Assembly: GCF_047663525.1 (NCBI RefSeq)
Contig: NC_092616.1
Location: forward strand, 3,447,501 to 3,511,500
From: Anas platyrhynchos
Lineage: Eukaryota > Chordata > Aves > Anseriformes > Anatidae
DNA: 64,000 nucleotides
Direction: 5' to 3'
A program made the position numbers and the translations under genes. This document shows positions 23,989 through 27,650 of the stretch, one piece after another. The notes under the pieces were generated by a model. That model did no database searches, had not been told where the DNA came from, and saw only the letters and a program-made list of their open reading frames with translations. Positions within the stretch are counted from its first letter, which is position 1. Every line of letters starts with the position of its first letter.

Positions 23989-24368
23989 TGTTGAGGGATT
24001 TCTTGAAACAGCAAAAATCCCATGGCTTGCTGTAGCTGAGCAAACCATGCTACCAGGGCAACTATGAGAAGTTCCCATGACAGTGTTCCCACATCGCCCA
24101 ATTGAGGAACTCAGAAAAATATTGTTACCAGTAGCTGGCTTCAAGGACAAGGTCTATGTGACTGCTAATCACAAGGGGGTTGTTTTCTTGCAGGTGGGGT
24201 TGTTTTCTTGCAGTTGTTTGTCTGAGTGCTTTTGACCAATAATCTTGTGTGAAACACTGTCCACCCCTGTTAAGTTCTCTATAAAAGTTAGGCTATTCGG
24301 GCAATAAAATGGAGCATGATCTGACTCTACTGGTGTCTGTCGTGCTTTCGGCCGTGCTTCCTGCAACA
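23989..24368 (+). mobile_element. 5' LTR, 380 bp
   Basis: Begins TGTTGAGG and ends CTGCAACA. Contains a TATA-like tctataaaag (about 24,279) and the polyadenylation signal caataaaatgg (about 24,302). A 16-base tandem pair (ggggttgttttcttgcag) lies in U3 near 24,175-24,210. Confidence 0.93.
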
Positions 24369-24370
24369 TA

Positions 24371-24388
24371 TGGCGCCCGAACAGGCTG
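24371..24388 (+). promoter_or_regulatory. Primer binding site, tRNA-Lys type
   Basis: TGGCGCCCGAACAGG, two bases after the LTR, is complementary to the 3' end of a lysine tRNA (15 consecutive matches; the last bases differ). Alpharetroviruses normally use tRNA-Trp, so the primer points to a beta-like backbone although the Env part is alpha-like. Confidence 0.88.
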
Positions 24389-24784
24389 AGACCTGAACAG
24401 GGCCTGAACAGGACATCGCAGCAGGAGACCTGAACAGGACCTGAACAGACATCGCACCGGAGCAGGACATCGCAGCACCGGAGCAGACATCGCAGCCGAG
24501 CACGGACATCGCAGCGGCGCCGGGGCAAACATCGCAGCGCAGCGGGACACCAGCGGCGCCGGCACATCCGAACGCAGGTAGACCAGGAGACCAGCGGCGC
24601 CGGGACCGGCGGCGCCGGGACCAGCGGCGCCGCGATCTCGCCGCGCCGTCGGGACTTCGGAGCGCCCATCCGACCGGCGCTTGAGCAGACCGGACACCGG
24701 CCCGGAAACACGGTACACAGGCCTCACGGTGAGACGCGGTACTCCCGCTGAGAGACGCGTGAAAACGGTGGGAAACGGGGTTTC
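24389..24784 (+). other. GC-rich leader of the retroelement
   Basis: Short direct repeats fill this leader: cctgaacagg/acatcgcagc (24,395-24,520) and accagcggcgcc (24,548-24,632). No gag reading frame is recognisable. A packaging signal would be expected here but cannot be assigned by eye. Confidence 0.6.
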
Positions 24785-24999
24785 GCGGCGGGACGTGGAA
24801 TTGCGGAGGGCCGCGGGAAACGGAGTTGCGGCGGGACGTGGAATTGCGGAGGGCCGCGGGAAATAGAGTTGCGGCGGGACGTGGAATTGCGGAGGGCCGC
24901 GGGAAAAAGAGTTGCGGCGAGACGTGGAATTGCGGAGGGCCGCGGGAAATAGAGTTGCGGCGGGACGTGGAATTGTGGAGGGCCGCGGGAAATTGACGT
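24785..24999 (+). repeat. Five 43-bp tandem repeats in the leader
   Basis: Five copies of a 43-base unit beginning gcggcgggacgtggaattgc and containing ggagggccgcggg, with few differences between copies. Each unit can pair internally (ggccgc/gcggc). They end about 150 bases before the env-like ATG. Confidence 0.9.
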
Positions 25000-25149
25000 G
25001 ATCACGGTGTGATGCGGGACATCCGAGATCGAGCTGCTATGGGAGACCAGAGGCATCAGTGGACAACGGCAGCCGACCCTCACCGTGTGGCAAGTCGGCA
25101 CAGAGCAGAGGGGCGGACATCAGGACCCTGCAGCCTGTCTGACGTAACC

Positions 25150-27210
25150 ATGGAGGCAGCGGCGGCTGTGCTGCTTCTCTTTGGCATTCTTTTTATAAGA
25201 GGTTTATCTTGCAATGCAAAAAAGACTATTCGTCCCCAGATCGGTGTTATAACTATGTTTCTGGATAACATTCCATGGGGTTGCCTCATTCTACGGACTA
25301 TTAATGACGATTTAGCTCTATTGCAGGGCAGGAGTGCAGAGACGCAGATTACACTGCCAAATGACCACCGGCAGGCTCGTTCACAAACAGCTTCTAGGAT
25401 TGCAGCTGGCACTGCCTGCAGCCGTATAGCAGACGTTACACTCTCTTTCCTAACTAGTAATCATGTGTCTTATCCATTTGTGGTGAATGGTCAGTGGCAA
25501 AAAGAAAAGGGCGAGAGTAAGGGGCGGCAAAGACAGAAACGGTACCAGGAGGATGCCACTGACACTACTAGCACGGGTAATAGGAGTAGTATAAGTGACA
25601 TAGGTGCAGGGCGGCGGCAGGCACTGCCGCGCTGTGGGGCATTCTGCCAGCTGCTCGCCCTCACCTGCCTGTGCACTGCTGCCGACAGTGCTAGAGCAAA
25701 ATGTGAAGACTGCTCAGACGGCAGTGATGAGAGTGCTTGTGTGAAGATGTGTGTTGAATCTGACTTTGTGTGCAACAGTGGTCAGTGTGTGCCAAACAGA
25801 TGGCAGTGTGATGGGGATCCGGACTGTGAAAATGGGTCTGATGAGAGTGCTGATCTGTGTTATATGAGAACATGCCAGGTAAATGAAATCAGCTGTGGTC
25901 CTCAGTCAACCCAGTGTATCCTGGTGTCCTGGAAATGTGATGGTGAAAAAGACTGTAACAGAGATCCTGATTGCAAGGATGGAAGTGATGAAATTAACTG
26001 CCCTTCTCAGGCCTGCAGGCCAGACCAGTTCAGATGTGCAGATGGGAACTGTGTCCACGGAAGAAGGCAGTGCAGTGGTGTGAGAGACTGTCTGGATGGC
26101 ACTGATGAAGCAAGCTGTAACGATGTTATTCAGTGCTCAGGACCTGGCAAATTCAAGTGCAGAAGTGGAGAATGCATAGATATCAACAAAGTGTGTAACC
26201 AGCAGAGAGACTGCAAGGACTGGGGTGCTGAGCCCCTGAAGGAATGCAACATACATGAATGTGACTGTCCAGCTGGGTTTGAGTTTGTAGATAAGAGAAA
26301 CTGTGGAGATATTGATGAATGTCAAAACCCTGGTATCTGTAGTCAAATCTGTATCAACCTGAAAGGTGGCTACAAATGTGAACGTAGCCGTGGCTATCAG
26401 GTGAATCCTTCTACAGGAACCGGGAAAGGGCCATACTGGTACAAAAACACAAATAACACCTGTGATTACAATGACGCTGCTAAGCAGGGTTTAGGGGTTT
26501 GTAGCATGGAGACAAGGGGTAACAACTACAGTGTTTGGAACAATTGTGCAGCTTTGGCCTTACCTCCTGATGTGCTTCTGATTTGTGGGGATGGGGCCTG
26601 GCAAGGTATCCCTGCAAATGCTATCAGATGTCCATGTTACTTAGATAAACTCATTGTATTTGCTCCTAGCTTGTTACAGTTGCGTGAGATCACCAGACAT
26701 AAATGGGCATTGCTTGCATCGGATTGCAATGATAATGTTGAATTGTGTGGGGTTGCAGCTAGAGCGGCATTAGCAATTTCAGTGCCCGGAGTGGCATCTG
26801 CGGCCGCACGTAACAACTTAGAAAAATTGGTATGCTGGGCCGAGAGGCAAGCCTATGCCACGACAGAGATACTTGAGGAGATGTTACCAGATCAAAATAG
26901 TCTGCGACATCTGCTTTTACAGGATCAAGCTGCTATTGACATCTTGCTTTTGGCTCAAAGGAATGGGTGTGAGGACTTTAAGGGAATGTACTGTTTAAAC
27001 CTTTCTGATCATAATGAGTCAATTCACAAATCCATTACTTTCCTGAAAGAGCATATGAGAAAGATTCAGTATGGTATCAATCCTTTCAATCAATGGTTCA
27101 CTGACTTGTTTGAAACAAGGTGTAGATGGTTGCTGGGTTTAGTCACAAGGGGATTAAGGATTTGGTTTATGGTGGTGGTATTCATCGTTGTGTGTTGTAA
27201 GTATAGCTAA
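25150..27210 (+). CDS. VLDLR-Env chimeric membrane protein, 686 aa
   Basis: Start chosen at 25,150 (Kozak ACCATGG) because a signal peptide follows (MEAAAAVLLLFGILFIRG); the frame is open from about 25,009. Residues 23-155: Env-like SU segment with a furin-type RQKR (128-131). Residues about 158-425: captured VLDLR. This has a signal-peptide remnant (FCQLLALTCLC), a cut first LDL class-A repeat (185-197), one complete repeat (201-237), a fused repeat with seven Cys (242-284), a complete repeat (289-323), a last repeat (329-366) with GAE in place of the acidic SDE, and cut EGF-like modules (371-410). Residues about 427-686: alpharetrovirus-like Env end with LPPDVLLICGDGAW, an AAID-LLLA segment (594-602), C607-x6-Y614-C615, a membrane span (about 669-683) and a 3-residue tail. 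Probably a surface or retained ligand-binding protein; function unknown. Confidence 0.9.
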   Translation: MEAAAAVLLLFGILFIRGLSCNAKKTIRPQIGVITMFLDNIPWGCLILRTINDDLALLQGRSAETQITLPNDHRQARSQTASRIAAGTACSRIADVTLSFLTSNHVSYPFVVNGQWQKEKGESKGRQRQKRYQEDATDTTSTGNRSSISDIGAGRRQALPRCGAFCQLLALTCLCTAADSARAKCEDCSDGSDESACVKMCVESDFVCNSGQCVPNRWQCDGDPDCENGSDESADLCYMRTCQVNEISCGPQSTQCILVSWKCDGEKDCNRDPDCKDGSDEINCPSQACRPDQFRCADGNCVHGRRQCSGVRDCLDGTDEASCNDVIQCSGPGKFKCRSGECIDINKVCNQQRDCKDWGAEPLKECNIHECDCPAGFEFVDKRNCGDIDECQNPGICSQICINLKGGYKCERSRGYQVNPSTGTGKGPYWYKNTNNTCDYNDAAKQGLGVCSMETRGNNYSVWNNCAALALPPDVLLICGDGAWQGIPANAIRCPCYLDKLIVFAPSLLQLREITRHKWALLASDCNDNVELCGVAARAALAISVPGVASAAARNNLEKLVCWAERQAYATTEILEEMLPDQNSLRHLLLQDQAAIDILLLAQRNGCEDFKGMYCLNLSDHNESIHKSITFLKEHMRKIQYGINPFNQWFTDLFETRCRWLLGLVTRGLRIWFMVVVFIVVCCKYS

Positions 27211-27254
27211 AGAGTCACTTGTAAAACTGCTGTGTCGGGCTTGGTTTGCTCAAA

Positions 27255-27269
27255 AGAAGAAGGGGGAAT
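27255..27269 (+). promoter_or_regulatory. Polypurine tract of the retroelement
   Basis: aagaagaagggggaat immediately precedes the TGTTGAGG that begins the 3' LTR. Confidence 0.88.
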
Positions 27270-27650
27270 TGTTGAGGGATTTCTTGAAACAGCAAAAATC
27301 CCATGGCTTGCTGTAGCTGAGCAAACCAAGCTACCAGGGCAACTATGAGAAGTTCCCATGACAGTGTTCCCACATCGCCCAATTGAGGAACTCAGAAAAA
27401 TATTGTTACCAGTAGCTGGCTTCAAGGACAAGGTTTATGTGACTGCTAATCACAAGGGGGTTGTTTTCTTGCAGGTGGGGTTGTTTTCTTGCAGTTGTTT
27501 GTCTGAGTGCTTTTGACCAATAATCTTGTGTGAAACACTGTCCACCCCTGTTAAGTTCTCTATAAAAGTTAGGCTATTCGGGCAATAAAATGGAGCATGA
27601 TCTGACTCTACTGTGTGTCTGTCGTGCTTTCGGCCGTGCTTCCTGCAACA
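27270..27650 (+). mobile_element. 3' LTR, 381 bp
   Basis: Same sequence as the 5' LTR except for two base changes and one inserted base; ends CTGCAACA, followed by the right-hand ACACTG. Confidence 0.93.

What the first reader, a model, noticed from the sequence alone, without database searches (positions are those of the whole stretch)
23989..27650. A host VLDLR ligand-binding region captured inside a retroviral env
A complete provirus-like element (LTRs, Lys-type primer site, polypurine tract, 6-bp target duplication) carries one ORF in which LDL class-A repeats and an EGF-like module of VLDLR sit between Env-like sequences. The class-A repeats are joined without introns, whereas the host gene splits them into exons, so the capture went through spliced mRNA, as for classical retroviral oncogene transduction. 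A receptor ectodomain fused into env is not a pattern I know from described endogenous retroviruses. It could act as a surface decoy, a dominant-negative lipoprotein receptor or a modified entry protein. All three are inference.
Basis: partly seen in the sequence, partly recalled or inferred. Interest (0 to 1): 0.97.

Follow-up and report, generated by a model that had tools for sequence, protein, structure and literature searches.

The report
Duck retroviruses carrying a stolen receptor
A family of retrovirus-derived elements in duck genomes has copied the ligand-binding part of the host's egg-yolk and lipoprotein receptor (VLDLR) from spliced messenger RNA and put it where the virus's own cell-binding domain used to be, an unusual theft that turned into a large, very young family.

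Summary
Window 23989-27650 is a provirus-like element: 380/381-bp LTRs, 6-bp target duplication, Lys-type primer site, no gag or pol frame. Its ORF reads leader, VLDLR exons 1-9 without introns, then C-terminal alpharetrovirus-like SU plus TM. Native VLDLR lies in separate exons on another contig; captured sequences branch with it. The copy is one of many: 40 of 40 scored matches (418 first-look candidates) are 98-100% identical; 7 of 10 dated copies have identical LTRs. Relatives occur in Anas, Aythya, Mergus and Cairina proteins. A second subfamily joins Gag, captured ZNF365, VLDLR and SU, in frames up to 1,299 codons. VLDLR replaces the SU receptor-binding part; SU/TM cleavage and CX6CC are lost. 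Point stops are rarer than neutrality predicts, but 14 of 29 ZNF365-type loci meet an early stop through shifts or deletions. Best reading: helper-dependent transduction of a receptor ectodomain, displayed as tether or decoy. Origin is well supported; function is inference. My literature searches found no description.

The parts
23983..23988 (+). target site duplication ACACTG (left)
   Evidence: sequence
23989..24368 (+). 5' LTR (TG...CA; TATAAA at LTR position 292; AATAAA at 24303)
24371..24384 (+). primer binding site TGGCGCCCGAACAG, Lys-type (type recalled)
24742..24999 (+). GC-rich leader with 43-bp tandem units
25012..27210 (+). chimeric ORF from the first ATG of the frame (open from 24997); a later ATG at 25150 begins a hydrophobic signal-like stretch
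25150..25602 (+). family-specific leader (N1, N2); furin-like RQKR at 25531-25542; no Pfam or PDB match
25603..25690 (+). VLDLR exon 1 part (signal peptide), 88.6% to host exon 1
25688..25741 (+). VLDLR exon 2 remnant (LA1 with an internal deletion)
25743..25860 (+). VLDLR exon 3 (LA2, whole)
25862..26002 (+). VLDLR exon 4 joined to the end of exon 5 (LA3/LA6 hybrid; LA4, LA5 and the start of LA6 deleted)
26003..26248 (+). VLDLR exons 6 and 7 (LA7, LA8)
26255..26418 (+). VLDLR exons 8 and 9 (EGF-A truncated, EGF-B); the match ends inside exon 9
26428..27207 (+). C-terminal SU (Avian_gp85 match 26542-26673) and TM (ASLV TM match 26845-27063; hydrophobic anchor 27139-27195)
27252..27268 (+). polypurine tract
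   Evidence: sequence
27270..27650 (+). 3' LTR
27651..27656 (+). target site duplication ACACTG (right)

Best explanation
This is one young, non-autonomous copy of a duck endogenous retrovirus family that transduced host VLDLR. A spliced VLDLR transcript (exons 1-9: signal peptide, eight LDL-A repeats, EGF-A/B) was joined, probably by template switching, into env, replacing the N-terminal, receptor-binding part of an alpharetrovirus-like SU and leaving C-terminal SU plus TM as stalk and anchor. Later deletions trimmed the array of this copy to LA2, an LA3/6 hybrid, LA7, LA8 and EGF-B. The element has no gag or pol frame, so it must be copied in trans; relatives with separate gag and protease frames exist in the genome. 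SHOWN: anatomy, exon origin, family, young age, point stops rarer than neutral, loss of the SU/TM cleavage motif and of CX6CC. INFERRED: LTR-driven translation of a membrane-anchored glycoprotein whose leader is cut at RQKR; because SU/TM is not cleaved it is not a normal fusion Env, and it most likely works as a surface-displayed LDL-A array (tether or decoy for LDLR-family ligands or for viruses that use LDL-A receptors). My confidence: origin 0.97, trans mobilisation 0.85, selection on the coding frame 0.7, tether or decoy function about 0.35.
For: Exon-by-exon match with introns removed. The captured group is one side of a branch (98/93) next to duck VLDLR (94/85), with a duck/goose-specific residue in 9 of 9. 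Envs without VLDLR (P0237-P0239) align over C-terminal SU and TM, and their SU N-terminus has no counterpart in the chimera. 30 of 30 type A loci hold N1, N2, VLDLR and the env C part, with no Gag or ZNF365 match in the 1.5-kb flanks. 25 of 30 are open from VLDLR through the membrane anchor. 9 of 10 copies have 6-bp duplications and 7 of 10 have identical LTRs. SU/TM furin motif absent in 30 of 30; CX6YC in 26 of 30, no match in 4. In 19 non-redundant ZNF365-type copies VLDLR has dN/dS 0.44 (0.29-0.72) and 0 point stops where 7.2 are expected, P 7e-4. Separate gag frames with a protease frame just downstream at five or more loci.
Against: No expression, protein or particle data. In type A the VLDLR dN/dS is 0.49 with an interval to 1.01, N1 is 1.00, env C 0.65 (0.35-1.26), and singleton changes look neutral. 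Reading on from N2, 14 of 29 ZNF365-type loci meet a stop before 450 codons, through frame shifts or deletions; shift-type gaps were seen in Gag in 8 of 18 and in VLDLR in 2 of 19. The array is eroded: LA1 is a remnant, LA3/6 has seven cysteines, and LA8 of this copy reads GAEP where 26 of 30 copies read GDEP. All 29 ZNF365-type loci examined lack the VLDLR signal peptide, so extracellular display cannot explain conservation there. The loci compared are best-scoring ones, so intactness and youth are biased upward. The structure model of the VLDLR piece was too poor to use.
Confidence: 0.6

Rival explanations
1. Neutral passenger: the VLDLR segment is inert cargo of a non-autonomous element. 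Open frames persist only because the copies are young and come from few masters.
For: Identical LTRs in 7 of 10 dated pairs; neutral-looking singletons and a type A VLDLR dN/dS interval reaching 1.01; eroded LDL-A modules; 14 of 29 ZNF365-type loci broken early, and all 29 without the VLDLR signal peptide.
Against: Among 19 non-redundant ZNF365-type copies with VLDLR dS 0.063 there are 0 point stops in ZNF365+N2+VLDLR+SU where 14.6 are expected (P 5e-7), and VLDLR dN/dS is 0.44 with an interval below 1. In type A 2 stops are seen where 8.5 are expected (P 0.009).
Confidence: 0.35
2. Attachment and germline route: the VLDLR array replaced the SU receptor-binding domain as the particle's attachment device. 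Particles carrying it would bind VLDL or vitellogenin and be carried along the yolk-uptake route into oocytes, with fusion supplied by a helper Env.
For: VLDLR sits where SU binds receptors. VLDLR is the essential receptor for yolk precursors in egg-laying species (PMC6213145, passages). The family amplified recently in the germline.
Against: No particle data. SU/TM cleavage and CX6CC are lost. A receptor fragment does not by itself bind the oocyte's receptor and needs a bridging ligand. The ZNF365-type branch has no VLDLR signal peptide.
Confidence: 0.12
3. Antiviral decoy: displayed LDL-A modules occupy glycoproteins of viruses that use LDL-A receptors (Tva-type alpharetroviruses, some alphaviruses), protecting the host cell.
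For: ALV-A/K receptor Tva is an LDL-A protein (PMC9550310, passages). A VLDLR ligand-binding-domain Fc decoy blocks an alphavirus in cells, in a paper with a section headed 'Decoy protects against lethal challenge' (PMC11324528, passages). Membrane anchor kept in 25 of 30 and LA2 matched in 29 of 30 type A copies, two of those 29 with a further substituted residue.
Against: No fixed, old, single domesticated locus was shown; the pattern is amplification of a mobile element. No duck virus was tested. LA1 and LA4-LA6 are largely deleted in this copy.
Confidence: 0.15
4. Assembly artefact or chance adjacency of a VLDLR retrocopy and a retrovirus.
For: None found.
Against: 40 of 40 scored matches carry the same segment; 30 of 30 type A loci hold the same parts; independent 6-bp duplications; proteins of several duck species.
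Confidence: 0.01

Closest known systems
Acute transforming retroviruses with captured host genes, such as the Gag-Myb-Ets fusion of avian E26 (recalled; one search gave listings only)
   Same: Host coding sequence taken from spliced mRNA, fused in frame with viral genes, pol missing, helper needed; two host genes in one virus, as in the Gag-ZNF365-VLDLR subfamily.
   Different: Endogenous family with many germline copies; the captured gene is a lipoprotein receptor ectodomain in env rather than a growth-control gene. Transformation is untested.
Alpharetroviral Env (gp85/gp37) and the relatives P0237, P0238 (host not given) and P0239 (Coturnix)
   Same: C-terminal SU and TM at 42-52% identity; gp85 Pfam match; ASLV TM match in the PDB.
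   Different: N-terminal SU replaced by VLDLR; no furin motif at SU/TM (P0239 lacks one too); CX6YC instead of CX6CC.
Tva, the LDL-A receptor of ALV-A/K (PMC9550310, passages)
   Same: LDL-A module protein tied to avian retroviral entry.
   Different: Tva is a host receptor outside the virus; here an LDL-A array lies inside the viral env.
Host VLDLR (G000:C35, about 29064820-29076915)
   Same: Signal peptide, LDL-A and EGF modules; 88.6-100% DNA identity over the exon matches.
   Different: Beta-propeller, O-linked region, own membrane anchor and cytoplasmic tail are not captured; several repeats deleted.
Restriction-type endogenous Env genes (Fv4, avian ev loci; recalled)
   Same: Endogenous env-locus products displayed on cells.
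   Different: Those block receptors with Env; here a receptor piece would block Env, an inverted logic that is untested.

Membership tests
Retroviral transduction of a host gene | Intron-less host exons between LTRs | tested here: met
Retroviral transduction of a host gene | Integration as a unit (target duplication, recurrent loci) | tested here: met
   duplication in 9 of 10
Retroviral transduction of a host gene | Expression of the transduced product | not testable with these tools
   no transcript or protein data
Alpharetrovirus-like Env | gp85 C-terminal region and ASLV-type TM | tested here: met
Alpharetrovirus-like Env | N-terminal SU receptor-binding part | tested here: not met
   no counterpart; VLDLR precedes the C-terminal SU
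Alpharetrovirus-like Env | Furin site between SU and TM | tested here: not met
   absent in 30 of 30 type A copies
Alpharetrovirus-like Env | CX6CC in TM | tested here: not met
   CX6YC in 26 of 30, no match in 4; CX6CC in 3 of 3 of P0237-P0239
Betaretrovirus-like backbone | Gag p24 domains and Lys-type primer site | tested here: inconclusive
   PF00607/PF19317 in related P0005 and P0006; Lys-type site at 24371; this copy has no gag or pol frame, no pol tree made
LDL receptor family (VLDLR) | LDL-A repeats and EGF modules closest to VLDLR | tested here: met
LDL receptor family (VLDLR) | Beta-propeller, own anchor and endocytic tail | tested here: not met
   match ends in exon 9
Acute transforming retrovirus | Replication-defective, helper available | tested here: inconclusive
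   no gag or pol frame in the element and no hit of the related Gag; gag and protease frames elsewhere; helper activity itself not tested
Acute transforming retrovirus | Cell transformation | not testable with these tools
   -

The most novel reading that the evidence does not exclude
A retrovirus lineage of ducks exchanged its receptor-binding domain for the host's own yolk and lipoprotein receptor ectodomain, turning entry logic round (the virus carries the receptor and reaches cells through the receptor's ligands). This gave it a route into growing oocytes, and a second capture (ZNF365) took place on the same backbone.
Probability: 0.12. Interest if true: 0.97.

Novelty: new variant of a known kind. 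Interest (0 to 1): 0.88.

Why it matters
Host-gene capture is known mainly from tumour viruses. Here it produced a receptor-Env chimera that spread to many germline loci, a second capture occurred in the same family, and there are signs of coding selection. If the product is made, ducks carry many copies of a truncated VLDLR on an Env stalk. That bears on retroviral entry evolution, on viruses that use LDL-A receptors, and on annotation: several duck 'VLDLR-like' database proteins appear to be these elements.

Tried and rejected
Assembly join: rejected. LDLR or LRP8 as source: rejected. Genomic capture: rejected, because introns are missing at the junctions examined. Structure prediction of the VLDLR piece gave mean pLDDT 34.8 and was dropped. 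IMG/VR scan with the env C part: no relative. An unbiased census of VLDLR frames by protein search did not complete (tried 103, 105, 109, 110, 112, 114, 116, 118). The first tree, the only one holding a stand-in for the window copy (P0001, inside the captured group), had a frame slip in the host row and was replaced; one search failed on a grouping error. Rows dropped before counts: 30 type A loci reduced to 24 non-redundant, 29 ZNF365-type loci to 19; the dN/dS and one search used all 30 (and 29).
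Full report
WHAT IS THERE. The window lies in a 1.26-Gb, 42-contig genome at G000:C30:3447501-3511500. The best protein match is an Anas zonorhyncha entry, 98% over the whole query, so the host is a duck, most likely Anas (inference). Element 23989-27650 has LTRs of 380 and 381 bp beginning TGTTG and ending CAACA, differing by 2 substitutions and 1 gap, and a 6-bp duplication ACACTG on both sides. 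A 14-base Lys-type primer site starts at 24371 and a purine tract lies at 27252-27268. There is no gag or pol frame: the only long forward frame is 24997-27210, and the family's Gag and host ZNF365 give no significant hit in the window. At the rate 1.91e-9 used in PMC10989122 (passages) the LTR difference gives about 1.4 million years.

THE CHIMERA. Pfam and PDB sequence searches divide the ORF into a leader without match, LDL-A repeats plus an EGF module, and a C-terminal part matching Avian_gp85 and the ASLV TM protein. The native VLDLR gene was found from its beta-propeller exons on C35, and 12 kb upstream were fetched. Window DNA matches exon 1 (88.6%, from 25603), exon 2 in two pieces (an internal deletion in LA1), exon 3, exon 4 up to a join with the last 42 bp of exon 5, exons 6 and 7, the end of exon 8, and exon 9 up to base 7464 of L081. 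The introns between these pieces are gone, so the source was spliced mRNA. The 5' junction lies inside exon 1, downstream of VLDLR's ATG, and the frame continues.

DONOR. In a protein tree of 18 rows the nine captured sequences (four Mergus, three Aythya, one Anas, one Cairina) form one side of a branch (98/93) next to duck VLDLR (94/85), and a duck/goose-specific Ala is shared by all nine. The goose row (a shortened database model) falls with emu, against expectation; I put that down to its missing LA3 but did not test it. The window copy's stand-in P0001 was only in the earlier tree, inside the captured group. Host-captured dS is 0.082 for type A and 0.108 for the ZNF365 type. The four carrier genera seen are ducks; only the best 120 of 2,276 protein hits were listed, so other birds are not excluded.

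WHAT VLDLR REPLACED. A search with the env C part (8,000 candidates scored) found 11 proteins: eight from the duck family and three Envs without VLDLR (P0237 and P0238, with no organism given, and P0239 from Coturnix). They align over C-terminal SU and TM; their N-terminal SU has no counterpart in the chimera. P0237 and P0238 have R-X-K-R type sites between SU and TM (P0239 does not) and all three have CX6CC, whereas the chimera has TRHKW and CEDFKGMYC. Of 30 type A copies, 30 lack the furin motif there and 26 have CX6YC (4 gave no match); 28 keep the N-terminal signal-like stretch and 28 an R-X-[KR]-R upstream of VLDLR.

THE FAMILY. The 3' LTR gave 1,522 first-look candidates; the 40 scored were all at least 99% identical. 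The VLDLR piece gave 418 candidates; the 40 scored were all full length at 98-100%. The best 30 were fetched (L051-L080): all hold N1, N2, VLDLR and env C, none with a Gag or ZNF365 match in the 1.5-kb flanks; 25 of 30 are open from VLDLR through the membrane anchor, five are truncated or shifted. Of 10 LTR pairs dated, 7 have no difference, the window has 2, L057 has 6, and L074 has 25 with unmatched flanks, so probably recombinant; 9 of 10 have perfect 6-bp duplications. These pairs come from the best matches, which favours young copies.

A SECOND CAPTURE. At least four database proteins carry the coiled coil of ZNF365 upstream of VLDLR (P0005, P0006, P0008, P0011). In the genome, native ZNF365 is in exons on C6, and I count 52 other places that carry it across the exon 1-2 border without an intron; 29 of these 52 have open frames of 1,033 to 1,299 codons, one of them with a stop noted inside the match, and several places are near-duplicates. 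Of the 29 places fetched (L022-L050), 29 hold N2 and VLDLR, 28 hold Gag sequence in the fetched stretch and 24 the C-terminal SU part, in the order Gag, ZNF365, N2, VLDLR, SU. In four of five loci compared the capture starts within one base of the same point, 144 bp upstream of the ZNF365 ATG, which suggests one event; the fifth has lost that part. The VLDLR signal peptide is missing in 29 of 29, so in a Gag fusion the LDL-A array would stay inside the cell or particle. In the one copy whose ends were read the LTR is related (82-93%) and the leader is shared (79%).

SELECTION. In type A, dN/dS is 0.49 for VLDLR (0.25-1.01), 1.00 for N1, 0.51 for N2 and 0.65 for env C (0.35-1.26). Singletons look neutral, shared changes have fewer replacements, and 2 stops are seen against 8.5 expected. 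In 19 non-redundant ZNF365-type copies dN/dS is 0.22 for Gag (0.18-0.31), 0.46 for ZNF365 (0.29-0.86), 0.44 for VLDLR (0.29-0.72), 0.75 for N2 and 0.61 for SU (0.32-1.15), with 0 point stops in the four non-Gag segments against 14.6 expected. Against this, frame shifts are not rare: reading on from N2, 14 of 29 loci meet a stop before 450 codons (for two of them, L023 and L033, the break lies at the start of N2), and 15 of 29 stay open to 450 codons or to the end of the fetched stretch; shift-type gaps occur in Gag in 8 of 18 and in VLDLR in 2 of 19. The expectation gives transitions double weight and uses the observed silent changes; no expectation for shifts was computed. The loci were chosen by similarity of the VLDLR or ZNF365 part, which favours young copies; for the ZNF365 set the choice did not look at VLDLR. 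I read this as moderate evidence that the frame was kept during spread. Having recounted the shifts I lowered coding selection from 0.8 to 0.7, the best explanation from 0.62 to 0.60, and raised the passenger rival from 0.33 to 0.35.

MOBILISATION. A Gag query found the fused loci and, at 75-91% identity, many loci with separate gag frames of about 500-690 codons (89 of 1,316 candidates scored). Protease frames lie just behind such gags at C3, C10 (two loci), C20 and C23. These are candidate helpers; pol and env of these loci were not read.

MECHANISM AND RIVALS. The product has a signal-like stretch, a furin-like site before VLDLR, LDL-A and EGF modules, a C-terminal SU/TM stalk and an anchor. 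Without SU/TM cleavage it should not fuse like a normal Env (inference). I favour a displayed LDL-A array acting as tether or decoy. VLDLR is the essential yolk-precursor receptor in egg-laying species (PMC6213145, passages), a VLDLR ligand-binding-domain Fc decoy blocks an alphavirus (PMC11324528, passages), and ALV-A/K use an LDL-A receptor (PMC9550310, passages). These show what such a product could do, not what it does. The passenger reading remains strong because the array is eroded, frames are often shifted in the ZNF365 type, and that type has no VLDLR signal peptide.

LITERATURE. Searches listed no paper that, by title and abstract start, describes VLDLR or ZNF365 capture by an endogenous retrovirus (search 53 listed 25 of 277 papers). 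Term searches in the main text of three duck genome papers (PMC11067759, PMC10989122, PMC11745021) found VLDLR nowhere. The library excludes most subscription journals, so absence there is weak.

Noticed in passing
window 690-6178: Another retroviral stretch: a 1,104-codon frame with RT, RNase H and integrase (MLV-type integrase C-terminus) overlapping a 728-codon frame without Pfam match, possibly an env.
   Followed up: partly
window 20401-21471 (-), 41598-42668 (+), 51084-51932 (-), 52997-54007 (-): Olfactory receptor-like reading frames (Pfam 7tm_4); the element sits among olfactory receptor genes.
   Followed up: no
G000:C10:19.1-19.6 Mb, C1:114.4-114.8 Mb, C6:28.3-28.5 Mb: Long arrays of near-identical gag frames at intervals of about 8-54 kb, suggesting segmental amplification of proviruses.
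   Followed up: no
L028, L029, L030 (G000:C2:76.50-76.51 Mb): Three tandem copies of a Gag-ZNF365-VLDLR element spaced exactly 5,872 bp.
   Followed up: no
L081 exon 8/intron junction (7278): Host duck VLDLR exon 8 appears to use a GC splice donor (GCAAGT).
   Followed up: no
P0058, P0003, P0018 (Anas and Cairina proteins): Family members differ in which LDL-A repeats remain; the Cairina protein keeps part of EGF-A that the Anas proteins lack, a possible record of stepwise loss.
   Followed up: partly
window 24742-24999: Leader with 43-bp GC-rich tandem units; in Aythya database models they are translated as part of 'VLDLR-like' proteins.
   Followed up: partly
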